Below the pieces are notes generated by a model. The model was not told the DNA's origin, searched no databases, and saw nothing but the letters and a program-made list of their open reading frames with translations. From Atopsyche davidsoni (Eukaryota; Arthropoda; Insecta; Trichoptera; Hydrobiosidae): a DNA stretch of 64,000 nucleotides. The DNA is taken from positions 18,414,001-18,478,000 of the forward strand of contig JAILWY010000012.1 in assembly GCA_022113835.1 (NCBI GenBank). Direction: 5' to 3'. This document shows positions 2,501 to 60,485 of this stretch, in pieces. Position 1 is the first letter of the stretch. Each line of letters opens with the position of its first letter. The translations under genes and the position numbers were made by a program.

Positions 2501-5081
2501 GGGTGTCCCTTAAATTTCAAGTTCGATATTTTTTTACGCACACCTTCTTAAAAGTTTAGTAATAACCCTATATTGTCTAGAAAAAAATATTAGTTCGATT
2601 TATAAACGATAACCCGTGGCGACTTGCGATTTAAGCTTGTCCATACAAGTTGCGTAAGTACTGCGCTGTGACTTTTACAAAAAAAACATGTAGTTACCTA
2701 CATGTTTTATTTGTCATTTCATACGTGATTTTTGAGATTAGTAGTGCTTCATTGTTTAGTGCGTTGACATGTCGGTGGAATTACGGAGTGTTAAACAAAA
2801 TAATTTCCTTATCGGTTTGCCTAGATATCAAATAAATGTTCTCTCAGTCCTATTTTACAATATTCTTGAGGTTAAACTGACTGTTAGTGAAAGTGCAAAT
2901 CTTGTGATTAGGGAGTGCATCATATATTGGGAAAAAGCAAGAATTCCAACAGGGGCATTTCCTAACTGCGTGAAGAAAATTGTTGATTTATATCATGTTT
3001 GGAGAGAGATGCAAAAAAATTGTAAGAAAACTCAGGTTACGTTCAAGAGCCGTGAGAACAATTTCAAAATTGATCTTGATAATTTGTTTGATATTGCACA
3101 TGCTGATGCTTTTGAGAGAATGAAAATAGAGGAAGATAAATTATTTTTAATGAAACAGAGAGAGCCAGGTCGACCGGGATGCTTAGGTGGTGTTGATAAA
3201 AAATTGGCAGAAAAATAAGATAGATCTAAACAACGACGAATGGAAGAAGAGGAAAGGGTTGTAAGACAAAGAGAATCACTAGCTGCTGAAACTAGAAAAT
3301 CAAGGGCAGAAGCATTAAAATCTGACTTCCAAAACAATGTACCCGACGTAGTCACAGTCCATTGGGATGGAAAACTATTACCCAGGTTGGATGTACGAAG
3401 TTCTAAAGAAGAACGCTTGCCAGTTATTGCTTCGTTTGACGATAAGGAACAGCTTCTTGCAGTGCCGAAACTAGAACATTCTTCTGGAAAACATCAAGGT
3501 AAGGCTGTCTCAACAGCTCTTTTTGACTGGAACCTTCACGATAAAGTACAAATAATGTGCTACGACACAACAGCTTCCAATACTGGCCATATTAATGGAG
3601 CTTGTGCTATTTTGGAGCAAACTTTAGGAAGAGAATTTCTGCTTTTCACCTGTCGTCATCATGTTTATGAATTGGTCCTAAAAGCTGTCTTTGATAGCAA
3701 AATTAAGCAAATTACTAGTAGCCCAGATATTCCAATGCTTAAAAAGTTCCGAGAAAAATGGAAACACATCGACGCTAGTAACATTGAACCATCTCTTAAT
3801 TTCGTAAAACAACGTGTTGCCGAGACAGACATTCAAGCTTTGTTAATATTTTATAAGGCAGAATTAGACAAAGGTTATGTAAGAGATGACTACCGCGAAT
3901 TGGTCGAACTGTGCGTAATAATTTTGGGAGGAGACACAGAGGAAAAATTAAAACTAAGCCCCCCCGGAGCCATGCATCAGGCACGCTGGATGGCGAGAAC
4001 GATCTATTCTTTAAAAATATGTTTACTTTAGTCACAATGCAGAATAACTGCGAAGGACAAAAAGGCTCTACAAGATGGTTTCTTATTTGTCGTGATATTG
4101 TATGTTAAACCTTGGCTCGAATGTACAGTGGCGATCAAAGCACCTAACCAAGATTTGCGCTTCTTGAAGATGTTAAAAGAGTACGAAAAAGTTGACGCAA
4201 CAATTTCTAATGCTTCTATAAGCAAGTTTAGCCATTACTTGTGGTATTTATGTGAAGAGACAGTTATTCTATCACTGTTTGATGATGAAGTTGATAACCA
4301 AACTAAGAAAATGATTGCCAACTTCAACCGGGACAAAACCTCAGATTTTAGCAAACGCGATGACCCGTCAAAGGAAGAACTTCCTCAAAGGTTGTTTGGT
4401 AAGTTAAATTGACTTTTTGTGATATATTTAAATTGTTGTAGATTTTTTTTGTTATTTGTCTTATTTTTCATTTTTTTCCAGACAAAACACTGCATGATTT
4501 CGTATCGGAAAAGAGCAAACAATTTTTATCACGACTGCAGATCGACGACAGTTTTCTAAAGGAAGATGTATCTTCTTGGAATAATAATGCTGCTTTTCTG
4601 GAAGCTAAATGAAAAATTAATTATTTAAGAGTTGTGAATGATACTGCTGAAAGGGCTGTTAAAATGATCCAAGATTTTAACGGACTTATCACGGCTGAAG
4701 AAGAACAAAAACAGTTCTTGCTGCGCTGTGTCCAGGAACATAGAAAATTGTATCCGGACTGTAAAAAAACAACTCTAAAAAAAAGTTACCCTGACTGATT
4801 GTTATTACTTTATGTTTTTGATTAAAAATTAATGTTCATCTTATTGAATTTTTACTTTTATTCACTTAATTTATTGCATTTATAATGATTTTATACCAGA
4901 CCGAAATATCAAGACAAAACACGTTTTTTACTAAACTTTGAAGCTCGGTCGGCACTGGTTGCAATTATGCTAGAAAGATGAAATTTTATATTTAAGTATC
5001 TTATAGCATTAGTAAAAAAAGTAGAGGGTAAGCATTTCGAAATTTGAAAAAAAAATTTTTTTGGTCATATAAGGGACACCC
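2501..5081 (+). mobile_element. DNA transposon with TIRs, superfamily unassigned
   Basis: The element is bounded by matching inverted ends: GGGTGTCCCTTA on the left and its reverse complement at 5070-5081 on the right. TA lies directly outside both ends, consistent with a TA duplication. The interior, about 2.6 kb, encodes a decayed transposase with an intron. An eight-base hAT duplication is not apparent. The transposase has a hAT-like DTTASN and CRHH arrangement, so the superfamily is left open. Other short TIR elements in the window share no obvious ends with it. Confidence 0.85.
2769..4798 (+). pseudogene. Broken transposase of the 2.6 kb TIR element
   Basis: The reading frame opens at ATG 2769 and runs to a stop near 3218, resumes at about 3240-4031, shifts again, and continues at 4092-4397. 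A likely intron (donor GTAAGT at 4398, acceptor TTTTTTCCAG at about 4482) leads to a last exon with an in-frame stop near 4610 and an end near 4798. Visible motifs are a WDGKLLP segment (a candidate first acidic residue), MCYDTTASNTGHINGAC, a CRHH box, and GAMHQARWMA. A glutamate- and lysine-rich stretch near 3100-3310 resembles a coiled coil. At least two frameshifts and two stops make it non-functional as written. I recognise the general family from uncharacterised arthropod and cnidarian transposase-like proteins but cannot name the superfamily from sequence alone. Confidence 0.8.
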
Positions 5082-21722: not shown

Positions 21723-22462
21723 CAGTGCTTCTCAAAGTGGTCCCTACGGACCCCAGGGGATCCCTGGGATCATTCAGGGGGTCCCTGAATAACGTCAGGG
21801 GGTCCGCGCGAGGTTTAATATAAAATAAAAAAATTGTGACACATTTTTATTAGTATGGAAATTAAAATAAATAACAATGAATACATAACGTCCTAAGTAT
21901 AATATAAATATAGACAGGTGAATAACATACAAGTAATAACAGGCATCGCGGTGAGTCAGGTAGGTTAATACAGGAACGCAATAGAGTCGATACTTGCACC
22001 AACTAGTCTATAATATGAATTTCTGTAGTTTTTCACCCTGGGTCCGTAGGCAAGTTTTGACTATGAAAGGGGGTCCATGGGCAAGTTTTGATTATGATAG
22101 GGGGTCCGTAGGCAAGTTTTGACTATGAAAGGGGGTCCATGGGCAAGTTTTGACTATGAAAGGGGGTCCATGGGCAAGTTTTGACTATGAAAGGGGGTCC
22201 ATGGGCAAGTTTTGATTATGATAGGGGGTCCGAAGGCAAGTTTTGACTATGAAAGGGGGTCCATGGGCAAGTTTTGACTATGAAAGGGGGTCCATGGGCA
22301 AGTTTTGACTATGAAAGGGGGTCCATGGGCAAGTTTTGATTATGATAGGGGGTCCGTAGGCAAGTTTTGACTATGAAAGAGGGTCCATGGGCAAATTTTG
22401 ACTATGAAAGAGGGTCCGTGGGCAAGTTTTGACTTTTGTTTTGAAGAGTTCGAAAGCCACTG
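21723..22462. mobile_element. Small hAT-type element with internal minisatellite
   Basis: A perfect 8-base duplication TTCTAGAT lies at 21715-21722 and 22463-22470. The ends are CAGTGCTTCTCAAAG on the left and the reverse complement of CTTTCGAACTC...; both begin CAGTG, as hAT ends do. The 740-bp element has no coding capacity. More than half of its length is a 31-bp minisatellite. Confidence 0.9.
22036..22437. repeat. 31-bp minisatellite, about 13 copies
   Basis: The unit has the core GGCAAGTTTTGACTATGAAA followed by GGGGGTCC and CATG or CGTA variants. Some units read GATTATGATA instead of GACTATGAAA, and these variant units recur at spaced intervals, suggesting expansion of a multi-unit block. 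Confidence 0.92.
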
Positions 22463-24051: not shown

Positions 24052-24815
24052 CGCGCCGCCCCGGAGCCCCGCGCCGCCCCGGAGCCCCGCGCCTCCGCCC
24101 TTAAGCCCCGCGCAGCCCCGGAGCCCCGCGCCTCCGCCCTTGAGCCCCGCGCCGCCCCGGAGCCCCGCGCCTCCGCCCCGGAGCCCCGCGCCTCCGCCCC
24201 GGAGCCCCGGAGCCCCGCGCCTCCGCCCTTGAGCCCCGCGCCGCCCCGGAGCCCCGCGCCTCCGCCCTTGAGCCCCGCGCCTCCGCCCCGGAGCCCCGCG
24301 CCTCCGCCCCGGAGCCCCGCGCCTCCGCCCCGGAGCCCCGCGCCTCCGCCCCGGAGCCCCGCGCCTCCGCCCCGGAGCCCCGCGCCGCCCCGGAGCCCCG
24401 CGCCTCCGCCCTTGAGCCCCGCGCCTCCGCCCCGGAGCCCCGCGCCTCCGCCCCGGAGCCCCGCGCCTCCGCCCCGGAGCCCCGCGCCTCCGCCCCGGAG
24501 CCCCGCGCCTCCGCCCCGGAGCCCCGCGCCGCCCCGGAGCCCCGCGCCTCCGCCCTTGAGCCCCGCGCCTCCGCCCCGGAGCCCCGCGCCTCCGCCCCGG
24601 AGCCCCGCGCCTCCGCCCCGGAGCCCCGCGCCGCCCCGGAGCCCCGCGCCTCCGCCCTTGAGCCCCGCGCCGCCCCGGAGCCCCGCGCCTCCGCCCTTGA
24701 GCCCCGCGCCTCCGCCCCGGAGCCCCGCGCCGCCCCGGAGCCCCACGCCTCCGCCCCGGAGCCCCGCGCCGCCACGGAGCCCCGCGCCTCCGCCCCACGC
24801 CTCCGCCTCGAGCCG
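24052..24815. repeat. Higher-order GC-rich minisatellite, 21- and 18-bp units
   Basis: Two 21-base units (GCCTCCGCCCC followed by GGAGCCCCGC, and the variant GCCTCCGCCCTTGAGCCCCG plus C) alternate with an 18-base unit (GCCGCCCCGGAGCCCCGC). In order, the array shows the block [TTGA unit, five GGAG units, one 18-mer] twice, then shorter versions with three, zero and one GGAG units. The full block is 144 bp. All unit lengths are multiples of three and stop-free, so frames of over 200 codons run across it on both strands; I do not regard these as genes. Confidence 0.92.
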
Positions 24816-34468: not shown

Positions 34469-35721
34469 CGAGGGCGGTCCGATAAGTACTTAGCCTACAA
34501 AAGAAAAACGAAAATTTTGGAAAAGTGGCGATTTATTTCTCAAAATAGTCTCCTTTTAGCTCGATACACTTGACCCTGTGATGCTCCAACTTCTTTAACC
34601 CATCTGAAAAATACGTTTTCTCGAGGTCTGCAACGTAGGCCTCCGTGGCGGCGATGACCTCCTCATTCGACTTGAATTTCTGCTCGACAAGTGACTTTTT
34701 CAAGTTTGGAAACAAAAACGGTGAATGGGGGAGCAGTTCGTAGTGCAATTCGACCAATTTGGCCGTGGCGACGGCGGAGGTGTGGGCCGGTGCGTTGTCA
34801 TGGTGGAAGAGCACTTTTTTCTTCGCCAAATGGAGCCGTTTTTTCTACAATTCGGCGTCGAATCGGCCCAATAATTCGGCATAGTAGAGCCCTGTGACCG
34901 TTTTTCTCTTCTCCAGGTAGTCAATGTAGATCACACCTTGTAAATCCCAGAAAACGGCGGCCATCACCTTTCCGGCCGATAGGACAGTCTTCGCCTTCTT
35001 CGGAGCATGTTTGCCGTGTGAAGTCCACTGTTTCGACTGTTCCTTGGTCTCTAGTGTGTACCAGTGGATCCATGTTTCGTCGACGGTCACGAAACGACGC
35101 AGAAACTCCTTCGGATTGCGCTTGAACAGCGTAGAACACTGCTCCGAAGTGGTCTCACTGTTGCGCTTGTTGTCCGGAGTGAGCAAACGGGGCACCCATC
35201 GCGCCGACAGCTTTCTCATGCCCAAAATTTAATGCAGGATATGACCCACGCGGTCTTTTGAGATGCCTACTGTTTCAGCTATCTCGCGCATCTTCAATCG
35301 GCGGTCTGCCAATACGAGATCGTGGATTATTGTCACGTTATCCTCCATGGTAGCCATGTTCGAGGCACCTGGGCGTGGCTCATCAAAAACCGACGTGCGA
35401 CCATGTTGAAACTCGTTAAACCAATTTTTCCATCGAAGGAGAAGAGTCACCGTACACAGCATTCAAGCGTTCTTTGATTTCCCTGCGCGATTTCCCTTCC
35501 AAAAACAAGAATCGAATCACCGACCGATATTGGTCTTTTTCCATTTTTTAAAATACGCGTACACGTCCGCTTCCACACGCGGTCAAAACAAAACTACGAG
35601 CCCGATTCGGCTGAAATTTTGGCAGTAGCCGTCTACAGGAATGTATTACACGATAGTAAATCTCTCTTGCCATACTAGCACCATTGGGTGGTGAGGCTAA
35701 GTACTTATCGGACCGCCCTCG
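34469..35721 (-). mobile_element. mariner-like element with perfect 28-bp TIRs
   Basis: Both ends start CGAGGGCGGTCCGATAAGTA and are identical over 28 bases before diverging. TA flanks both sides, the duplication expected for Tc1/mariner. The length of 1253 bp is typical of a full-length mariner. The intact ends contrast with a broken transposase, so it could still be mobilised in trans. It sits inside a TA microsatellite that continues on the far side. Confidence 0.95.
34533..35544 (-). pseudogene. mariner transposase, frameshifted, third catalytic Asp region lost
   Basis: The frame starts at ATG 35544 (MEKDQYRSVIRFLFLEGKSR), breaks near 35425, and resumes with WFNEFQHGRTSVFDEPRPGA and a second helix-turn-helix (REIAETVGISKDRVGHILH). 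After another break come VTVDETWIHWYTLETKEQSK, with the first Asp, and LFHHDNAPAHTSAVATAKL, with the second. The segment that should hold the third Asp is missing: LPHSP is followed directly by FLFPNLKKSL, which points to a small deletion near 34710. The C-terminus (KLEHHRVKCIELKGDYFEK) is otherwise complete. Confidence 0.9.

Positions 35722-35790
<69 letters not shown>
35722..35790. repeat. TA microsatellite between two transposons
   Basis: About 33 TA dinucleotides between the right end of one mariner-like element and the left end of the next DDE element. Confidence 0.92.
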
Positions 35791-35794
<4 letters not shown>

Positions 35795-37057
35795 GCCATA
35801 TTTTATATCAGTATGTGACTAATAAATAACACCAAAGAAAAGCAACCGATTTATATATATGAGATATTTTTTATTTAATTTGGCCCTTTGCAATTTATTT
35901 GAATTAGTTTTTGAACACAACATCAATCAATCAAGCCTTTATTGGCCAAAGCAAAATGTGCCCTTTTTGCTGCGTTTTCCAACACTTTTTTGAAAATCTC
36001 GGGTGGTATAGCGATGATTTCGGCACAAATGTTTTCCTTGAGCTCGTCAATGGTCCGAGATTTGCTGGCGTACACTTTGTTTTTTAAATAACCCCACAAA
36101 AAGAAGTCCCGAGGGGTCAAATCTGGGTGGCCAGTCAATGTCACCTTTTTTTGACATAATTTTCGTTTCAGAAACTCCATTGTTTGATTTGCAGTGTGGC
36201 ATGGCGAACCGTCTTGTTGAAGCCAGTAACCGTCAAGACCATTTTCACACATTTGTGGGTAGGCATAATGAGCCAACGTCCACTGATATCGATTCCCATC
36301 GACTGTTTCACCTTCTCTGAAGAAAACTGGCCCAATGATGGTTTTGGCACAAACGCCGGCCCAAACAGGCATTTTTTGGCCGTGCAATGGTGTTTCATGG
36401 ATCTCGTGTGGATTCTCCGTTCACCAAATGCGGCAAATTGCTTGTTAACGGCACCAGAGAGTGAAATGTGAAACGGTCATAAAAATTTGGTTCTAGAAAT
36501 CAGGTTCAGTGTTAGCCATTTGAGCGACTGTTTGGCCGTATTTCAAGCGACGTGGATGGTCTGCCGGCAATATTCTTTGAGTCAATTGCACTTTATACGG
36601 AAACAAATGCAAATTATCTTTCAAATGCGCCGCAAAAGGGTTCCACTGACGCCAAAATGCTGAGACGATACGACACATGTGGGTTCTCGGCAACACTCTC
36701 ACTTACCGCTTCAATTAGTTCATTGGAACGTCTTGAGCGTTGATGAATACCATGTGGACGATCTCCCACTGTCCCGTGTTAAAGAAAATTCAACACCAAA
36801 CGACGAATAGTGTAGTCAGACGGTGCTTGTTGGCCACGATATTTTTGACGATATGCACGTTGAGTTAATACAACTAAACGACTATTTCAAATGTACAGCG
36901 TCACTATTTCTGCGCGTTGTTTCGGTGTGAAACTATTCATGGTTAAAATTGTACTGAATTGACGTTTCAAAACATGTTTACTCAAGTCAATCGGTTGATA
37001 AACGTCAAAGTTATTCAATGTTTACATACCGACATAAAAGATGGCGCACCCTGTATA
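35790..37057 (-). mobile_element. Tc1/mariner-superfamily (IS630-type) element
   Basis: The right end reads, in reverse complement, GTATACAGGGTGCGCCATCT. The left end at about 35788-35815 has a degenerate match, TATACACGCCATATTTTATA. The total of about 1.27 kb and the encoded protein fit an IS630-related element. The left end has lost several bases next to the microsatellite. Confidence 0.75.
35923..36940 (-). pseudogene. IS630-type transposase, multiple stops
   Basis: ATG 36940 opens MNSFTPKQRAEIVTLYI followed at once by a stop. The DNA-binding region continues in the same frame (RAYRQKYRGQQAPSDYTIRR), then breaks. The C-terminal half is intact as 154 codons (35923-36387): MPVWAGVCAKTIIGPVFF, WLQQDGSPCHTANQTMEF with the second Asp, and DLTPRDFFLWGYLKNKVYAS with the third acidic region. 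The first Asp region near 36440 is damaged by stops. These motifs match the DDE_3-type transposases common in insect genomes. Confidence 0.85.
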
Positions 37058-49937: not shown

Positions 49938-50123
49938 ATGGCCATGGTGAGCATGAACAGCCTGCTCAACGGTAAGGATTCGCGCTGGCTGCAGCTGGAG
50001 GTGTGCCGAGAGTTCCAGCGCAACAAGTGCTCCCGCTCCGACACGGAGTGCAAGTTCGCGCACCCCCCGGCCAACGTCGAGGTGCAGAACGGCCGCGTCA
50101 CCGCCTGCTACGACAGCATCAAG
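49938..50123 (+). CDS. mbl: muscleblind, first coding exon (finger 1, first half of finger 2)
   Basis: Muscleblind is a nuclear and cytoplasmic RNA-binding protein that binds YGCY motifs and controls alternative splicing. This exon encodes residues 1-62. [20 protein letters not shown] is the conserved N-terminus, so ATG 49938 is the chosen start. Finger 1 is C23-x7-C31-x6-C38-x3-H42 ([21 protein letters not shown]). The first cysteine of finger 2 is C57 in TACYDSIK. The donor GTATGC follows K62 in phase 0, splitting finger 2 as in other insect mbl genes. The codons are very GC-rich compared with the flanking introns. The equivalent exon in Drosophila gives rise to circMbl. Confidence 0.97.
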
Positions 50124-50153
50124 GTATGCCGACTTCCTTTACATCACACTCTC

Positions 50154-50213
50154 GGGTCGCGGGTCGCGGGTCGCGGGTCGCGGGTCGCGGGTGCGGGTCC
50201 GGGTGCAGGTCGC
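50154..50213. repeat. 7-bp G-rich tandem array next to mbl donor
   Basis: CGGGTCG-type heptamers repeated about six times and grading into GGGTGCGGGTCCGGGTGCAG. It begins 30 bases after the donor of the first coding exon. Confidence 0.88.
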
Positions 50214-50632
50214 GCCCCGGCGCCCCGCGACCCCGGACCGGTTCGGCCCGGCCGACCGCGGGCGCTCCGACCGTTACGGTTCCCACGGCGGCCGGCGGGA
50301 CGTCGCTCCGCCGCAAAACCCCCGGGCGGAGCCTCGAATCCGGTACGTTCGTGTAGCTGTAGATATTCAAGGAAAATTTCAATTCACGACAGCGACCGTC
50401 AGCACGGCCGGTTGAAAAATAATATACACTCCCGAAGACTGAAGAATGCGAAGGGATTGAAATCTGAGCATGCAGTCTGTTGATCGGATGCAGGTCGGTC
50501 GACGGCAAAATAAGAAAACGGCAAAAAATCGTAATAAAAAATAATGTGTTAACGAAATTGTAAATTAATTTCAAAATATATGAAGTTTTCCATAAGATAG
50601 TCTATCAAGGCAGTTGCTTCTAGCCTTTTAAT

Positions 50633-50664
50633 TGCCTCTGGTGTCCAACCGGACACCAGAGGCA
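50633..50664. repeat. Perfect 14-bp hairpin in mbl intron
   Basis: TGCCTCTGGTGTCC is followed by AACC and then its exact reverse complement GGACACCAGAGGCA. It sits at the edge of a hAT-derived fragment. Confidence 0.92.
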
Positions 50665-50669
50665 GTCCA

Positions 50670-51320
50670 TTACCTGTCGAAATCGTGTCATTTAATTAAT
50701 TTAATAGTCACTTTATTTTTCTATGTCGAAAGTTAATTTTTTTACAGAGTACTAGAAAACTATAAATTATATTTAGCTATTTTTTATTATTTAATTTACG
50801 TCTATTTTTAGAGTAAAATAAAATCTTGAAGATGTTGAAAAATTGGATAAAATGACGACTTTTCAAAACCAAAGTTTGTTAAAGATTTTTTTTTTTTAAT
50901 TTTTAAATTAATAAGACGCACATATTTATGTTAAATCTTTCAATTCCAATTTAAAAAAAGACTTTTGTTTGATGTTTAGGATTCTTGGAAAATGTACCGG
51001 ACGAATCTCCAAATTCCTACACTTCAATCGGAAAAACACATATTTATCATATTAATAGTAAATTTACAAGAAGTAAAATCCCATCCTCGTCGCCATTGTA
51101 ACGTAATCAAGAACACGTCTATCTTGTACTCTGTTTATTATAAGACTGGCGAAGTATGGGAATGTAACATAGGTCCTCGCAACATAATGCTACCTACGTT
51201 ACAGTTCGGAAAAAGGGATGTATCAAACTTTTTGCATTTAAATATTTCTGATTGGTGCAGTCGATTTTTCGCAAAACGGACTAGAAAATGATTAAAAAAA
51301 CTCGATTATGGGACCTAGAC
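50670..51320 (-). mobile_element. Fragment of the 11.3 kb hAT-type element
   Basis: In reverse complement this stretch matches 11530-12060 in order: TTGAGTTTTTTGATAATTTT-like, CTCTTGTAAATTT, AACTTTGGTTTTGAAAAGTC and TAATTTATAG words. No terminal CAGTGGTCC sequence is visible, so only the interior survives. The 99-codon frame at 50992-51291 lies inside it and is not a gene. Confidence 0.7.
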
Positions 51321-51504
51321 CCTTAACGAGACCGCCGTTAATTTGGCAGCGTTCGCAGTGAGTCGGATCGAGCCAGACGCACCCGGAGTCGAAGAGCTTA
51401 GAAAAAGATAATTCGCAAGCTTCTGGACATCCGGTGATACTCTAAAATCAGTTTAAAATATATGGAATATAAAGAAATATTAAGAAAGTATGACATATTC
51501 ATAA

Positions 51505-51645
51505 GTAAATAATCAATATTTTTGACAGAGTACTCGGTGGAATTCCATTTTAATATTTAAAATAAAATAGTTGAGTGATTTTTCCACACGTTAATTTTTA
51601 TCGGTGATCGGTATCGCCAACCTTTCGCGTTGGCATTGTCACGCC
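51505..51645 (-). repeat. Stem-loop repeat family, copy in mbl intron
   Basis: Runs from CAATATTTTTGACAGAGTAC through GGAATTCCATTTTAATATTT and GAGTGATTTTTCCACACGTT to CGGTATCGCCAACC and GCGTTGGCATTGTC. This is a nearly full copy in minus orientation. Confidence 0.85.
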
Positions 51646-53022
51646 TATTAAGGAATCAACCAAAATTTCGTTGGCAGAGAAGAACCGGGTTTTTTGTACA
51701 AATTAAAATTTGAGAAGTACAAATATAAATTTCGAAGGAAGGATATCCACAATGGTGGATGGAAAAAAATATTACCCGCTGTCAGATTACGATCTCTGCA
51801 CAACGCGTTACATTCGGAGAGGCGGTTCCGAAAAATCTCAATTTTGTAAAAACTACTAGGCGGTAGGTATGACACTGATTTGATTGATGATTTGTCAGTG
51901 CTCACATACTCATATCACGCGCTTAGAGCGTCCCACTCGCTATTGTATAACAAAAATGGCAGTTCTTAAGGAAAACGAGGAAATTGTTGCCCGGATTAAA
52001 ATACGAATTTACTAGCAGTTTGAGGATTAAATGGGACGGATTGCGAATCGATCTAGATTTTAGGATTTAGAAAATTGCATGATCGAAACACATATTTTTG
52101 GGAATGTAAGTCTCCGGATGTGGCTGATAAGCATTTTAAAAGAGCATATTTTTTCGCATATTGAAAATGATTGAACCTACACAAGTCACGATTATACTTT
52201 TTCTGAGAGTTTCTTTGAATCACTTTCAATATGCGAAAAAATATGCCTAATCATATTAGTTAGTAATATAAGCCTGTAAAGGTAATTAAAACGCACATGA
52301 TTGACGTTCAATCCACAAAATAGACATATATTCTAAAAGAGCACTAAAGAATTGAAACAAACACGTCTTTGTAAACATAAAATACACTATTTTCACATTT
52401 TTTTTCAAGTGTACATTTTTATCCTTTGATTCTAAAAATCAAATGATTTAAGCGATATATCGAGAAAATTTCGATTTCCTGTGATCTTGGCTTTTTGTAA
52501 AAACATGAAAATAATCAGATGACATAGACATGATTTCATAGACAAAAGCTAATTTTGTAAAATGGATCGAGTGAGATGTCCAACAGAAGGCGCTGCCGCA
52601 GCCCCGAGCCCCGCATCTGTCAGAAAGACACAAAGACAACAGCTTGCCGACGCTGCACGGCTTGAAAGTGTACAAGATTACATAACAATGCTGTGAGTAA
52701 TCAGTGTGGGAATTTTATTTGACGCAAATGTCAAATTAATGTTTGATAATTGGTAGCAAATAGGCAAACCGGGGTTTTCGGTTTCTATGCGAGGTACGCT
52801 CGACTATACGCAGTAAATTGCTTATCGGCTGCATAGCTGATATCATGCAGTCTCGAGTTGCACGTCGGCGTAGCTCCGTCGTAATGACCCTCGTATAGCG
52901 TGAGAGTGCGAAGCTATCGGTGCCGACTGCGACGGCTCTCATTCGCACCCTTATGAAGGCTCTCGAGAATAGAGCGGGACACGATTTTAATCGTGATTTA
53001 CGAGATGAACTTTCGGTTTCAG

Positions 53023-53376
53023 GGTCGGTGTAATCGCGAGAAGCCGCCTTGCAAGTACTTTCACCCGCCGCAGCACCTCAAGGATCAGCTGCTCATCAAC
53101 GGGCGCAACCATCTGGCGCTGAAGAACGCGCTCATGCAGCAAATGGGTCTTGCGCCCGGACAGGTGCTGCCCGCCCAGATGCCCGCCGTGGCGAGCAGCC
53201 CTTACCTCGCGGGCGTGCCGGCCGTAGGCGGCGTCGGCGCCTACAGTCCGTACTTTGCCGGCCAACTCGTGCCCACTCTGGTCGGCCACGAGCCCGGCCT
53301 TCCCTCGCCGCTGGCGCCGCCCCTGCCTCCGCAACACCTGGCGCCCCAGAAGCTGCCTCGCTCCGATCGCCTGGAG
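53023..53376 (+). CDS. mbl: muscleblind exon: second half of finger 2 and linker
   Basis: Encodes residues 63-180, phase 0 on both sides. GRCNREKPPCKYFHPPQHLK completes finger 2 (C57-x7-C65-x6-C72-x3-H76). HLALKNALMQQMGLAPGQ is the conserved helix after it. The Pro/Ala/Gly-rich linker PYLAGVPAVGGVGAYSPYFA leads to QKLPRSDRLE, which is nearly invariant before finger 3. Acceptor TTTCGGTTTCAG ends at 53022; donor GTCAGT starts at 53377. Confidence 0.97.
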
Positions 53377-53811: not shown

Positions 53812-54021
53812 GTGTGCCGCGAGTTCCAGCGGGGCGCGTGCAAGCGCGCGGAGACGGAGTGCCGCTTCGCTCACCCCGCGCGCGCCGTGGCGGCCCACGA
53901 GGACGGCTCCGTGACGGTGTGCATGGACGCCGTGAAGGGGCGCTGCGGGCGCGACCCCTGCCGCTATTTCCACCCCCCCCTGCACCTGCAGGCGCACCTT
54001 AAGGCGCAGGCGAGAGGCGCG
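53812..54021 (+). CDS. mbl: muscleblind exon: fingers 3 and 4
   Basis: Encodes residues 181-250. Finger 3 is C182-x7-C190-x6-C197-x3-H201 ([20 protein letters not shown]). Finger 4 is C217-x7-C225-x4-C230-x3-H234 ([19 protein letters not shown]). The spacing difference between the two matches the known tandem finger pairs. It ends HLKAQARGA with donor GTACGC at 54022, phase 0. The acceptor is CGTGTGCAG ending at 53811. The exon is the branch point for the alternative 3' parts. Confidence 0.97.
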
Positions 54022-55003: not shown

Positions 55004-55126
55004 GGCGCGGGTAGCGCGGCTGCGGGCGCGGTGGTTGCGGCCGGCGGCGCCGACGCGAGCAAGAAGAGGCCCGCCGACGACCTGCTACTGGTACCGCCGC
55101 AAGCTTTGCATGCTCCGCCCCCGTAG
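55004..55126 (+). CDS. mbl: muscleblind alternative terminal exon with basic KKRP motif
   Basis: The acceptor CTCGCTTGCTGTAG ends at 55003. In phase 0 after exon 53812-54021 it encodes 40 residues: a Gly/Ala run, then DASKKRPADDLLLVPPQALH and APPP, ending at TAG 55124-55126. The resulting protein has 290 residues and four fingers. KKRP resembles the short basic nuclear-localisation motifs of MBNL proteins, which is inference. A GTACCG inside the exon (55091) could act as a weak donor. No polyadenylation signal is obvious just after the stop, so this may be a cassette exon as well as a terminal one. Confidence 0.65.
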   Translation, partial: GAGSAAAGAVVAAGGADASKKRPADDLLLVPPQALHAPPP

Positions 55127-55624: not shown

Positions 55625-55666
55625 ATGGACATGAAGACAGTCGGATCATTCTACTATGAAAATTTT
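55625..55666 (+). CDS. mbl: muscleblind 42-nt microexon
   Basis: Encodes MDMKTVGSFYYENF, residues 251-264, phase 0 on both sides, so it can be included or skipped without changing frame. Acceptor TTATTTTCAG and donor GTAAGT are both close to consensus. The peptide resembles the small exon found in other insect mbl genes ahead of the FPGMVPYKR exon, from memory of the family. Confidence 0.85.
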
Positions 55667-57142: not shown

Positions 57143-57862
57143 GCATTCCCGGGAATGGTGCCCTATAAGCGGGCTGCGGCCGACAAGTCGGGTGTCCCCG
57201 TGTACCAGCCCGCCACCACCTACCAGCAGCTAATGCAGCTGCAGCAGCCCTTCGTGCCCGTGTCATGTGAGTACCCCGCCCCCGCCCCCGCGCCCGCGCC
57301 CGCCGCCTCCCCCCGGCCCGCTGCGCCCGAGCCACCCGTCGAGTCTGCCCCTACCCTCACGCCCTCTCTCGCTCCCGCCCTCGCGCCTGCCCCCACCGCT
57401 AGTCCCGCCCGACCTGCCCGGCCGTCGCCGATCGCGCTCTCCTATACGGGCGCCGCGCTAAGCAAAGCGGCACCCGCTCCCACCCCTGCTGCTGCCCCAC
57501 CCTTGCTCTACCGGCCGCCACCCTATCCACCCCTCTTGCGCTCCCAGCTGCTGCAGTCGCAACTGCAGTCGCAGTTGCAGTCGCAGTTGCACTCCCAGCT
57601 GCAGTCCCAGCTGCAGTCCCAGCTGCAGGCGCAAGCGCAAGCTCAAGCACAAGCGCAAGCGCAAGCGCAAGTGCAACAGCAGCAGCAGCAGCAGCACCAA
57701 CAGCAACAACAGCTGCAGCTGGGTCAGCTGGGTGGGCAGCTGCCCCTGCAATGGGCACCGCAGCTGGTGTATCCGCAGCAACTGCTGTACGGTCTGCCTC
57801 CCGCGCCCGCGCCAGGTGCACCGCCCCCTCTCAATCCCTACAAGAAGATGAAGACCACCTAA
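57143..57862 (+). CDS. mbl: muscleblind long terminal exon, Pro/Ala- and Gln-rich
   Basis: Encodes residues 265-503 of the long form, ending at TAA 57860-57862. AFPGMVPYKRAAADKSGVPV and TYQQLMQLQQPFVPVSCEYP are conserved in insect mbl. Then follow a Pro/Ala region (residues 307-395) and a striking Gln-rich block (about 398-464) made of repeated QSQL and AQ words and a Q7 run, ending NPYKKMKTT. The acceptor CTCTCCTCGCAG ends at 57142. A consensus donor GTGAGT at 57267 lies inside the codons for SCEY; when used, the exon is 57143-57266 and the transcript continues to 59776. The long form therefore equals retention of that intron. Confidence 0.93.
   Translation, partial: AFPGMVPYKRAAADKSGVPVYQPATTYQQLMQLQQPFVPVSCEYPAPAPAPAPAASPRPAAPEPPVESAPTLTPSLAPALAPAPTASPARPARPSPIALSYTGAALSKAAPAPTPAAAPPLLYRPPPYPPLLRSQLLQSQLQSQLQSQLHSQLQSQLQSQLQAQAQAQAQAQAQAQVQQQQQQQHQQQQQLQLGQLGGQLPLQWAPQLVYPQQLLYGLPPAPAPGAPPPLNPYKKMKTT
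57542..57740 (+). repeat. mbl: Coding Gln-rich repeat in mbl
   Basis: CAGTCGCAGTTG-type 12-base words (QSQL, about eight copies), then GCGCAAGCGCAA words (QA, about eight copies), then a CAG run (CAGCAGCAGCAG). The three adjoining repeat types suggest local slippage. Confidence 0.85.
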
Positions 57863-58195
57863 GGCTCGGGCGCGGCCCGGGCGCCGGTCTAGTCAGGCCC
57901 GGCGGCGCGGGCGGCCGGCCGGGAGCGGAGTGCCGCGCCCGCCGCCGCCTGCCAGTCGCCGACGCCCTCGTGTCGTGTCCCGCCTCGTCAAGTCTAATGT
58001 TTAAAAAACAATTTAGCAGTGGAGATGGGACATGCGGAGACGCGAGTGTGGAGATTGTGTTCCATTGTGATAGCCGTAGCTTAGCTGATAGCGTAGAGGG
58101 CCAGGCCCGCCTCCTTCGAGGCTGTAAATGCATAAAATATTATAACTATTTTTTTAACATGGATAAGTAATAAAGCAACCAAAATTGTTCTGTAG
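57863..58195 (+). other. mbl: mbl 3' UTR of the long isoform
   Basis: The GC-rich start of the UTR gives way to AT-rich sequence. AATAAA at 58169-58174 would place cleavage at about 58190. Confidence 0.6.
58169..58174 (+). terminator. mbl: Polyadenylation signal AATAAA
   Basis: A canonical hexamer about 310 bases after the long-isoform stop, followed within 30 bases by TGTTCTGT. Confidence 0.6.
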
Positions 58196-58332
58196 ATGGG
58201 AAATTTTTATTTAGCTTTAAGTAGGATTACGTGTTGTAACTTGTACAGAGTGGTCGAGGCCTGCCATGCGCATCTGCCACCTCTGCGCCTTGCTATTTGT
58301 AAACAAACACACATATTTACTATTTACATACT

Positions 58333-58364
<32 letters not shown>

Positions 58365-59775
58365 CATATGGAGTCAGTATTTGTAATAATAACGCTTGAA
58401 AATGCATGATTATTTGTTTTTTATTACCTACTTGGTTACATCATCTTTGGTATAATACTGAATTTGGCTTATCGATCTGGAAGCTGTTCTATCCTCTTGG
58501 CATATCACACAGTCGCTTATCTCTCGTAAGTCACCGAGCCTCACGCCCCGCCCGCCTCCCGTAGTTCCCTTCCTTCCGCTAGGACCGGCGGACAGTGTAC
58601 AGTCCCCCGCTCGGGGAGCAAGGGTCCGTCTGTCGGCCTCCCACCGCGCCACCGGACCAAAGTAAACACCGGCCGACAGACACACCGGCGAGCGAGCAAA
58701 CGTCGACCAGCCCGACAGACAGACCAAGTCTACCGAATCGTAGAACATATTCCTTCCTGTAAAGAAAAAGCAAAAGAGCATCAGTCGAATAACGATAACA
58801 CTGCTTGAGTGTACGCTTCCTTGGAACTTTAACTAGAGCGAATGCCCCGTGACCGGAATATCCCGGGAGCCGCGTCACTTGCGGTCTCTAACCTCATCCT
58901 CGATTGAACTGATTTTGTTAAATAGTAGTAAGTTGTTACAGCTTTGTACTTGATCCGATTTGGTTTGGTGTGGCTCCGTTGTTTGTGTCCCACGCCGCTT
59001 CGGTGGCCCCGGCTCGGCCGCTAACACTGCCTAGCGTAGCATGGACTAGACCTTAATTATCCACTCGATCAATGCCCAGGTATTTGTTTTTTTGTATTAT
59101 GCAATATTTAACAGTTTCCTTATCAGTTGCACCGCTTTTGGCATATTTTGACTCGATGACTCTCCTCATCGGTGTTCTTATTTGTCAGCGTTTAGTGATT
59201 TTCCGGTTTTCACAATGTCAGCCGAATCGACACTCATCCAGTCATGGACGCTTCTTATTTTCACTTGGAGATCTTTCATCTCCTAATCTTGTTCCATGTC
59301 CTGGTGAGTATCGCTTCAATCTGATGGGTGTGACTTGTCGTGCCGTAACAAGATTGACGAGTTCGCTTTGAGTCTCGCTTTTGATGAATTATCAGTTTGA
59401 GTAACCGCTTCTTACACTTATATAACTTGACGTGCCGCTTACCGCATGCCGACGTAGTGGACCGAAGCAACCGTGGCAGGCCGCAGAGGCTAACGAGGAC
59501 CGCGTCCTCGGACAGGCTCCTCGTTTGCCTTCCAGAGACTTGTCACTGTCGCCTTCGTTGTTCCGTTCTAGGCTTACCGGCAAAGTCGCGTGAAGCTTCA
59601 CGGTAAATATGATTTTATTTTTTATTAATGCATGTTCAGTCGATTTCCGATCGCATGTACCTAATGATGGCTTTTTGTTTCATGTCTCCCAAATGTGATG
59701 ACATCTGTAATCCGCAATAACTTGTCAACTTGTCCACTATTCACTCGCATTTCTTGACTCGGGGGCCGGTGGCAG
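58196..59775 (+). other. mbl: mbl intron to the finger 5/6 exons
   Basis: Includes a TA microsatellite at about 58335-58367 and otherwise unremarkable sequence. No coding exon is supported until 59776. Confidence 0.6.
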
Positions 59776-59831
59776 GCGGGGCGGCGCCTCCCAACGCGCC
59801 CCACGTGCTGTACACCGACGCCCGGGGACAG
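59776..59831 (+). CDS. mbl: muscleblind alternative exon before finger 5
   Basis: The acceptor GGTGGCAG ends at 59775 and the donor GTACCC starts at 59832. The 56 bases read, after completing a split codon, GAAPPNAPHVLYTDARGQ and end in phase 0. The incoming phase needs one base from the previous exon, and exon 57143-57266 leaves exactly one (T), giving Cys306. The acceptor is short on pyrimidines, so confidence rests mainly on the phase fit and on the neighbours. Confidence 0.7.
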
Positions 59832-60203
59832 GTACCCGCTTGTAAGAGTGTCCGCCTCTCCCTCCCGGAGGCTCTCCACCCCGTCTTTGCTTAGTAACGT
59901 GAGTAGATAACAGCCCGTTTGCGCTTCCGCCGCCTCCACTGCTTGCGCATCGGCGTCTGTGGGAGGCCGGGATATCGCACGGTAACCGTGCGAGCTGCTT
60001 AAGCTGCCCGGAGCGGTCGGCGAATGGCCGGCGCTACCCGACCTCCCGCTGGCGCTGCCTCGGCGCTGCCGAGTGTAGCTCCCGCCGCCGGCCACTCTCA
60101 GTCCGGCTGAGTCGACCGACCACGGTTCGGGGCCGTATCCTCCCGAAGCGCGCTTGCCGCGTTCAGCTCTGAAAGTGCTTGATCTCAGTGTATAACGTTT
60201 CAG

Positions 60204-60288
60204 TTACTGGACACCCTCCCGGTGTGCCAAGATTTTAATCGGCGAGGCTGCGTCCGCCCCGCCTGCAGGTTCGTGCACGTCAGGGAAG
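60204..60288 (+). CDS. mbl: muscleblind alternative exon: CCCH finger 5
   Basis: Acceptor GTATAACGTTTCAG ends at 60203; donor GTGAGT starts at 60289. It encodes LLDTLPVCQDFNRRGC then VRPACRFVHVRE, residues 325-352, with the finger C332-x7-C340-x4-C345-x3-H349, and leaves one base of a glycine codon. The finger keeps the VC-x-(D/E)-F and CRF-x-H pattern of muscleblind fingers 1 and 3. It also resembles the middle finger of ZC3H10, which is the main alternative assignment. Confidence 0.8.
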
Positions 60289-60354
60289 GTGAGTGGGCCG
60301 TGGGGAGGGGATATAACTAAGAAGGTGACGCTGACTAATACCGGGCTGTTGCAG

Positions 60355-60485
60355 GAGGCGGACTGGCGGTGGAGCGCGGCAGTGTGGCGGTGTGCCGGGA
60401 CGCGGCAGCGGGGCGCTGCGGGCGCAGGGCGTGCCGCTACTACCACATCCCCGTGGCCCTGCCACCGGCGCCGGTGTTGCCCTGA
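60355..60485 (+). CDS. mbl: muscleblind alternative terminal exon: CCCH finger 6
   Basis: Acceptor CGGGCTGTTGCAG ends at 60354. A second possible acceptor, GAG, lies 3 bases on, so one glycine may be optional. Residues 353-395 read GGGLAVERGSVAVC, then RDAAAGRCGRRACRYYH and IPVALPPAPVLP, ending at TGA 60483-60485. The finger is C366-x7-C374-x4-C379-x3-H383, the same spacing as finger 4, and GSV-x-VC-x-DA-x-x-GRCGR-x-x-CRY-x-H aligns with finger 4 almost residue for residue. The linker from H349 to C366 is 16 residues, against 15 between fingers 3 and 4. Confidence 0.82.

What the first reader, a model, noticed from the sequence alone, without database searches (positions are those of the whole stretch)
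57143..60485. Predicted muscleblind isoform with a third tandem CCCH finger pair
Seen: three small exons downstream of the usual mbl stop encode two CCCH fingers (C-x7-C-x4-C-x3-H twice). The second matches finger 4 at most key positions. Exon phases fit without a gap: 57143-57266 leaves one base, 59776 supplies two, then phase 0, then 1+2, ending at a stop. Known: insect muscleblind proteins are usually described with four fingers, vertebrate MBNL with four and nematode MBL-1 with two. Inference: this gene can make a 395-residue, six-finger protein that trades the Gln-rich tail for an extra RNA-binding module, probably an ancient duplication of the finger pair. A separate adjacent ZC3H10-like gene is the alternative.
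Basis: partly seen in the sequence, partly recalled or inferred. Interest (0 to 1): 0.85.

Follow-up and report, generated by a model that had tools for sequence, protein, structure and literature searches.

The report
Third zinc-finger pair of insect muscleblind
The muscleblind gene of this insect, probably a caddisfly, carries exons for a third pair of RNA-binding zinc fingers; the pair is genuine and shared by animals from corals to lampreys, though it is already present in automated gene annotations and the nearest relatives seem to use it in place of the second pair.

Summary
Exons 59776-59831, 60204-60288 and 60355-60485 splice in frame onto muscleblind exon 57143-57266 and encode two CCCH fingers. 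The pair is muscleblind's own: protein searches return muscleblind isoforms, including caddisfly models aligned across the same joins and 80% identical in the pair, and a ZC3H10-type gene lies on another contig. Of 286 proteins fetched in three searches, two aimed at this pair, 210 carry it and 67 carry all three pairs, in insects, crustaceans, arachnids, molluscs, echinoderms, amphioxus, a tunicate, lampreys and corals. A tree of muscleblind pairs makes it one group, 100/100; adding ZC3H10 weakens that. A Drosophila isoform with a poorly conserved second pair, MblF, is in print (PMC3315501) and is probably the same thing. The six-finger product is possible but unsupported nearby: 25 of 25 fetched moth, butterfly and caddisfly models with the third pair lack the second. 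The likeliest main product is a four-finger protein with pairs 1 and 3. RNA contact positions are kept; binding is inferred.

The parts
49938..50123 (+). muscleblind coding exon with the start codon, finger 1 and the first part of finger 2
   Evidence: its 62 residues are identical to Arctopsyche P0015
53023..53376 (+). coding exon: rest of finger 2 and the linker
53812..54021 (+). cassette exon for the second finger pair (fingers 3/4), 210 nt, phase 0-0
   Evidence: relatives
55004..55090 (+). coding exon with KKRPADD, 87 nt, phase 0-0
   Evidence: aligned to GAGCAATG...SKKRPAESDLLL in P0016
55625..55666 (+). mini-exon MDMKTVGSFYYENF, 42 nt, phase 0-0
   Evidence: same residues MDMKTVGSFYYENF in P0016
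57143..57266 (+). exon AFPGMVPYKRAAADK...PFVPVS, shared by both C-terminal forms; ends at donor GTGAGT
   Evidence: I read it as the MblC-type sequence of PMC2238819 (YKRA for FKRP), which is inference
57267..57862 (+). read-through Gln-rich tail and stop of the form without fingers 5/6
   Evidence: translation
58169..58174 (+). AATAAA, candidate poly(A) signal of the Gln-rich form
   Evidence: pattern only
59776..59831 (+). mini-exon CGAAPPNAPHVLYTDARGQ (its first codon is shared with the exon before)
   Evidence: aligned residues CCAVPLNAQHVLYTDERGQ in P0015 and P0016
59842..59843 (+). decoy donor GTAAGA; its use would shift the frame to an early stop
60204..60288 (+). finger 5 exon, LLDTLPVCQDFNRRGCVRPACRFVHVREG
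60355..60485 (+). finger 6 exon and stop codon
   Evidence: Pfam match in a whole-genome scan at window 60378-60452

Best explanation
Fingers 5/6 are an alternative C-terminal module of the muscleblind gene itself: a third tandem zinc-finger pair (TZF3) that dates back at least to the common ancestor of corals and bilaterians. Splicing chooses the end of the protein. If the donor at 57267 is ignored, the message reads into the Gln-rich tail and stops at 57862. If it is used, the message continues through 59776-59831 to fingers 5 and 6. A second choice is exon 53812-54021, which adds or omits fingers 3/4. In this insect the commonest TZF3 form is probably TZF1 + TZF3, four fingers, with exon 53812-54021 skipped; some messages may join exon 53023-53376 straight to the finger 5 exon. 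The module would bind RNA as MBNL1 fingers do, by stacking aromatic side chains on a GC step, and so change which spacing or cluster of YGCY sites the protein prefers. Shown: the exons, frame, homology, kept contact positions and the isoform pattern in relatives' protein models. Inferred: that the isoform is made in this species, that the pair binds RNA, and its effect on targets.
For: Frame and splice sites. 157 proteins match the tail at E <= 0.01; of the 120 listed, 99 have muscleblind in the name given, and none of the listed names is ZC3H10 (counted by eye). Caddisfly models P0015 and P0016 align across the joins 57266/59776, 59831/60204 and 60288/60355. P0057, a caddisfly model, joins the linker exon straight to finger 5, LE|LLDTLPV; the window can encode the same 251-residue form. 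210 of 286 fetched proteins have TZF3: 67 with all three pairs, 112 with TZF1+TZF3, 27 with TZF2+TZF3, 4 with TZF3 alone (motif classification; two of the three searches were aimed at TZF3, so this is no measure of how common it is). TZF3 is one group in the tree of mbl pairs, 100/100. Over 25 TZF3 rows, the positions of MBNL1 Phe202 and Tyr236 hold F or Y in 23 and 25, and that of Arg195 is Arg in 25; PMC9780971 (passages read) says Phe202 and Tyr236 intercalate the GC step. A predicted model of a relative whose only complete pair is TZF3 (P0195; mean pLDDT 56 overall, 85-92 in the blocks over the pair) best matches MBNL1 fingers 3/4, including the RNA complex 3d2s. Three short contigs of source 'lgn' (1469 to 2045 bases) encode fingers 1, 2, 5, 6 in one open frame, as a spliced transcript would. 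A ZC3H10-type gene is separate.
Against: No transcript of this species was examined. The relatives' isoforms are mostly automated models. Finger 5 is C-x7-C-x4-C-x3-H, not the x6 form given for MBNL fingers 1 and 3 (PMC9780971). With ZC3H10-type pairs added, TZF3 is no longer one group in the best tree, though one group is not rejected (AU p 0.323). The caddisfly Arctopsyche has Leu at the aromatic contact of finger 5 and an oyster has Lys. YGCY in the intron after the alternative donor is about as frequent, against base composition, as in the whole window.
Confidence: 0.85

Rival explanations
1. The six-finger product: all three pairs in one protein of 395 to 424 residues, a substantial product in this species.
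For: The second-pair exon is intact and phase 0-0, so inclusion keeps the frame. 67 of 286 fetched proteins have all three pairs, in beetles, mosquitoes, Orthoptera, Hymenoptera, Odonata, crustaceans, arachnids, molluscs, echinoderms, chordates and corals; 66 of the 67 show six strictly spaced fingers, P0058 shows five.
Against: 0 of 25 fetched moth, butterfly and caddisfly models with fingers 5/6 include fingers 3/4; 6 of 6 fetched Lepidoptera models with fingers 3/4 lack fingers 5/6. One search lists only 120 of 157 hits, only 120 of 620, and clusters at 90% can hide members.
Confidence: 0.35
2. The last exons are a separate ZC3H10-like gene lying next to muscleblind.
For: Both window fingers have the short x7-x4-x3 spacing also seen in fingers of the ZC3H10-type gene, and AU tests with so few columns do not reject grouping window TZF3 with ZC3H10-type pairs (p 0.302).
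Against: A three-finger ZC3H10-type gene is on contig C19 and a second gene of that type on C4 (the name ZC3H10 is my recall of the architecture). The pair scores higher against the window's other pairs than against these (108 and 143 against 61 and 65). Relatives' models carry it in muscleblind proteins.
Confidence: 0.02
3. The pair is real and expressed but has lost RNA recognition and serves for protein contact or localisation.
For: TZF3 looks to evolve faster than TZF1 (window end branch 0.22 against 0), and one contact position of finger 5 is not aromatic in 2 of 25 rows.
Against: Arg195-equivalent in 25 of 25 rows, aromatic contacts in 23 and 25 of 25 (the zinc ligands are kept in all rows, but rows were picked by that motif). 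The predicted fold of P0195 matches the RNA-bound MBNL1 pair.
Confidence: 0.2
4. Decaying exons without a product.
For: The donor at 59832 is weak and lies next to a stronger decoy.
Against: Open frame, intact zinc ligands and 80% identity of the pair to the Arctopsyche model; presence from corals onward.
Confidence: 0.03

Closest known systems
Arctopsyche grandis splicing regulator muscleblind isoforms X4, X5, X6 (automated models P0016, P0015, P0057)
   Same: P0015 and P0016 align across the same joins to fingers 5/6; TZF3 80% identical; residues of the first coding exon identical
   Different: All three lack the second finger pair; the window keeps that exon intact but its use is unknown
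Drosophila MblF, transcript RF (Irion 2012, PMC3315501)
   Same: A fly Mbl protein with the first pair and a second, poorly conserved pair, 32% identical to the human MBNL1 pair in that paper; D. mauritiana P0109 has TZF1+TZF3, and its TZF3 is 37% identical to MBNL1 TZF2 over my boundaries
   Different: I did not see the RF sequence, so equivalence is inference; Irion treats it as a second pair and does not describe three pairs in the parts that I read
Vertebrate MBNL1-3
   Same: Pfam zf-CCCH_10 fingers in tandem; contact residues kept
   Different: Mammalian MBNL has four fingers (PMC9780971, passages); lamprey models P0208, P0233 and P0247 have the third pair
ZC3H10
   Same: Short-spaced CCCH fingers, C-x7-C-x4-C-x3-H
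   Different: Different linker, three fingers, own locus in this genome

Membership tests
Muscleblind/MBNL | Tandem CCCH pair with a Pfam zf-CCCH_10 match | tested here: met
   Joined pair 42.6 bits, cut-off 27, two stretches
Muscleblind/MBNL | First finger of each pair is C-x7-C-x6-C-x3-H, second is C-x7-C-x4-C-x3-H (as given in PMC9780971) | tested here: not met
   Finger 5 is x4. The first finger is x4 in 25 of 25 TZF3 rows (picked partly by that spacing) and in 3 of 23 TZF2 rows, and the second finger is x6 in 19 of 27 TZF1 rows, so the rule is not universal even for accepted muscleblind pairs
Muscleblind/MBNL | GC-step contact residues (Phe202, Tyr236; Arg195 nearby) | tested here: met
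   Window has F, Y and R at these places
Muscleblind/MBNL | Part of a muscleblind transcript | tested here: inconclusive
   Frame fits and relatives' models join it; no RNA of this species was available
Muscleblind/MBNL | Regulates alternative splicing | not testable with these tools
   Needs an assay
Muscleblind/MBNL | Insect gene structure: TZF1 split by an intron, TZF2 in one exon (PMC3315501) | tested here: met
   Exons 49938-50123 and 53023-53376 split finger 2; 53812-54021 holds the whole second pair
ZC3H10 | Separate gene with three fingers (recalled) | tested here: not met
   Window pair has two fingers and fits the mbl frame; a three-finger gene is on C19

The most novel reading that the evidence does not exclude
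The ancestral animal muscleblind, before corals and bilaterians split, already had three tandem zinc-finger pairs, and the familiar four-finger human and two-finger nematode proteins are reduced forms. The third pair survives as an alternative C-terminal RNA-reading module in many invertebrates and in lampreys. In moths, butterflies and caddisflies it is used instead of the second pair rather than with it, so the gene switches between two different second readers.
Probability: 0.6. Interest if true: 0.6.

Novelty: new member of a known kind. Interest (0 to 1): 0.42.

Why it matters
Human MBNL1 is the protein sequestered by CUG repeats in myotonic dystrophy, and flies are a model for it (PMC3315501). 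If invertebrate muscleblind genes carry a third RNA-binding pair that human genes lack, isoform-specific results in flies need re-reading, and the effect of adding or swapping a pair on splicing targets becomes a direct experiment. In my paper searches no listed title or abstract opening describes a three-pair muscleblind. They cover open-licence PubMed Central only, and most listed papers were not opened.

Tried and rejected
ZC3H10-like neighbour: rejected on gene evidence; the finger tree alone would not settle it.

MBL autoregulation of the 57267 donor: I counted YGCY motifs in ten intervals and the whole window against single-base composition, without shuffles. The intron 57267-59775 has 31.1 per kb against 21.4 expected, the whole window 19.1 against 13.8, so the ratios are close (about 1.45 and 1.4). 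Single intervals run from about 0.8 to 2.0 times expectation, the highest being the 66-base intron 60289-60354. I make no claim.

First structure search: the ten significant matches of the P0057 model are MBNL pairs, the best at 71% identity to fingers 1/2; I read these as matches through TZF1, so it says nothing firm about TZF3. I then folded P0195, in which TZF3 is the only complete pair (aligned ranges are not printed).

Papers: searches found no paper. One search listed 2 of 3, its 1, and searches listed 10 of 108 and 10 of 1,056; none of those listed describes three pairs in its title or abstract opening. Searches were judged from listings alone. Of PMC3315501 I read parts 1 to 3 of 7 and passages; of PMC2238819, PMC5041496 and PMC9780971 only passages.

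Rows left out: the tree rows come from 25 fetched proteins picked by me out of 286, the window model and two human pairs. The two Watersipora rows were dropped from the second tree. The motif classification misses pairs with altered spacing, for example the gastropod models P0150 to P0158, and puts P0058, with five strictly spaced fingers, among the three-pair models; P0232, a lamprey model, has six strictly spaced fingers but a third pair that is not of the TZF3 pattern.

Rfam and tRNA scans of the window found nothing at their default thresholds.
Full report
What is there. The window lies on one contig of a 370.7 Mb assembly (G000:C12:18414001-18478000). It holds the muscleblind (mbl) gene on the + strand. 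The fetched proteins most like it are isoforms of the caddisfly Arctopsyche grandis (order Trichoptera): over the first 180 residues of the model the identity is 88% to P0015 and 66 to 79% to the nine other insect proteins compared, so the source is probably a caddisfly. Coding exons found are 49938-50123, 53023-53376, 53812-54021, 55004-55090, 55625-55666 and 57143-57266, then 59776-59831, 60204-60288 and 60355-60485. All junctions are AG/GT and in frame. The full set codes 424 residues.

Two ends. After 57266 the message can read on through a Gln-rich stretch to a stop at 57862, with an AATAAA at 58169. Or it can use the donor at 57267 and splice to the last three exons, which encode fingers 5 and 6, both C-x7-C-x4-C-x3-H. 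The donor at 59832 is weak on a generic score of my own, and a stronger decoy at 59842 would shift the frame to an early stop.

Whose fingers. Pfam calls the joined pair zf-CCCH_10 at 42.6 bits, cut-off 27. Six solved sequences match at E <= 10, from 8.5e-11 to 3.1e-9: five are named MBNL1 or MBNL2, and the best, 2e5s, bears a catalogue name and is muscleblind-like 2 by its entry title. The search of 5.8 billion proteins with the tail gave 157 proteins at E <= 0.01, of which 120 are listed; 99 of the 120 have muscleblind in the name given, 21 have another or no name, and no listed name is ZC3H10 (counted by eye). The caddisfly models P0015 and P0016 align without a break across PFVPVSC, RGQLLDTLPV and the pair, which is 80% identical.

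The ZC3H10 alternative. A genome scan for the zf-CCCH_10 family gives 13 matches at E <= 1. Six are over the cut-off; five of these are fingers 1, 2, 3, 4 and 6 of this gene and the sixth is on contig C19. Finger 5 alone is not found. The control matched in 2 of 14 other genomes, none over the cut-off. Read out, C19 holds a three-finger protein of ZC3H10 layout, and C4 holds a second protein of that type (the name is my recall of the layout). The eight matches of a scan for the other CCCH family, PF00642, are other genes. Window TZF3 aligns to the window's other pairs with scores 108 and 143 and to the two ZC3H10-type pairs with 61 and 65. The AU tests do not help: with only 62 columns, grouping window TZF3 with the ZC3H10-type pairs is not rejected (p 0.302). 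The case against ZC3H10 rests on the gene evidence.

How old. Three searches listed 286 different proteins: 120 of 157, 87 of 87 and 120 of 620 hits, with overlap. By motif, 67 have TZF1, TZF2 and TZF3, 112 have TZF1+TZF3, 27 have TZF2+TZF3, 4 have TZF3 alone and 71 have TZF1+TZF2; 5 more have one pair only. Two of the searches were aimed at TZF3, so these are not frequencies. TZF3 occurs in insects, crustaceans, spiders, scorpions, ticks, a sea spider, molluscs, a bryozoan, sea urchins, starfish, amphioxus, Ciona, lampreys and two corals. These are mostly automated models. In a tree of 75 pairs TZF3 is one group with 100/100 support and TZF1 one group with 96/99. TZF2 is not one group in the best tree, but one group is not rejected (AU p 0.269). 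When two ZC3H10-type pairs are added, TZF3 is no longer one group in the best tree; one group is again not rejected (p 0.323). The long branches of the added rows make this placement unsure. The reading that a three-pair gene existed before corals and bilaterians split follows from the spread of three-pair genes in the same order and does not depend on that root.

Six fingers or four. Of the 25 fetched moth, butterfly and caddisfly models with TZF3, none has TZF2; 19 carry the YTDERGQLLDTLPVC junction and the other six join the linker exon straight to finger 5 (LE|LLDTLPV; P0057, P0081, P0086, P0087, P0089, P0092). One bee model, P0183, has the same direct join. The six Lepidoptera models with TZF2 in the fetched set (P0213, P0230, P0250, P0262, P0266, P0277) have no TZF3. 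So in this superorder the two pairs look like alternatives. Lists were cut and clusters hide members, so this is a pattern and not a proof. Six-finger models are common elsewhere, so the six-finger product cannot be excluded here.

Mechanism. PMC9780971 (passages read) states that MBNL1 Phe202 and Tyr236 intercalate the GC step. Over 25 TZF3 rows the first position is F or Y in 23 (L in Arctopsyche, K in an oyster), the second Y or F in 25, and the Arg195 position Arg in 25. The window has F, Y and R. A predicted model of P0195, whose only complete pair is TZF3, has mean pLDDT 56 overall but 85 to 92 in the blocks over the pair. It best matches MBNL1 fingers 3/4, among them the RNA complex 3d2s, with E 2.1e-5 to 7.1e-5 for the first five chains. 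RNA binding by TZF3 is therefore likely but inferred. Irion found that fly transgenes with one or two pairs rescue different splicing events (PMC3315501, parts 1 to 3 and passages read), which makes a swap of pairs a plausible way to change targets.

Expression. No RNA of this species was at hand. Three entries of source 'lgn', with contigs of 1469 to 2045 bases, encode fingers 1, 2, 5, 6 in one open frame; one of these clusters has 71 members. In the window these exons spread over 10.5 kb, so such contigs are best read as spliced transcripts. That 'lgn' stands for assembled sequencing reads is my reading of the label.

What is known. Irion 2012 (PMC3315501) reports two pairs in insect mbl and names MblF, transcript RF, as a protein with a second pair only 32% identical to the human one. 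The TZF3 of D. mauritiana P0109 is 37% identical to MBNL1 TZF2 over my boundaries, so MblF is probably TZF1+TZF3; I did not see the RF sequence. Oddo et al. 2016 (PMC5041496, passages read; first author recalled) tested muscleblind homologues from five animals. My searches for three pairs or six fingers in print turned up no description in the titles and abstract openings listed, within open-licence papers only.

Verdict. The pair is a new member of a widespread, automatically annotated kind. The specific six-finger product is undecided and, from relatives, less likely than TZF1+TZF3. The wider reading, that three pairs are ancestral and human and nematode genes are reduced, is the interesting part; loss in jawed vertebrates and nematodes was not tested here and rests on published finger counts (PMC9780971, PMC3315501).

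Noticed in passing
window 50124-53022: The intron inside the first finger pair is only 2,899 bases, while Irion 2012 gives about 40 kb to over 700 kb for that intron in other insects.
   Followed up: no
window 59832-59849: Two donors ten bases apart, the outer one stronger on my score; its use would truncate the protein before finger 5. It could be a regulated off-switch.
   Followed up: partly
window 34845-36420, - strand: Broken mariner-type transposon remains (type from my recall); Pfam Transposase_1 on 34845-35228 at E 2.4e-21, no Pfam match at E <= 0.001 for 35923-36420.
   Followed up: partly
window 2760-4412: ORFs that look like a decayed transposase (my impression); 3219-4031 had no Pfam match at E <= 0.001.
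   Followed up: partly
window 22040-22434 and 24056-24796: Tandem arrays with periods of 31/124 and 21/39/102/144 bases.
   Followed up: no
G000:C4:12520558-12520710: A second ZC3H10-type gene in this genome, with two fingers read in a 434-residue open frame.
   Followed up: partly
P0150-P0158 (Lymnaea, Biomphalaria): The snail models keep finger 5 of the third pair, but finger 6 no longer fits the C-x7-C-x4/6-C-x3-H spacing searched.
   Followed up: no
P0232 (Lethenteron reissneri): This lamprey model has six strictly spaced fingers, but its last pair is not of the TZF3 pattern; other lamprey models do have TZF3.
   Followed up: no
P0075, P0113: Automated names are misleading: muscleblind-type models are called nek3 kinase and naked cuticle.
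   Followed up: no
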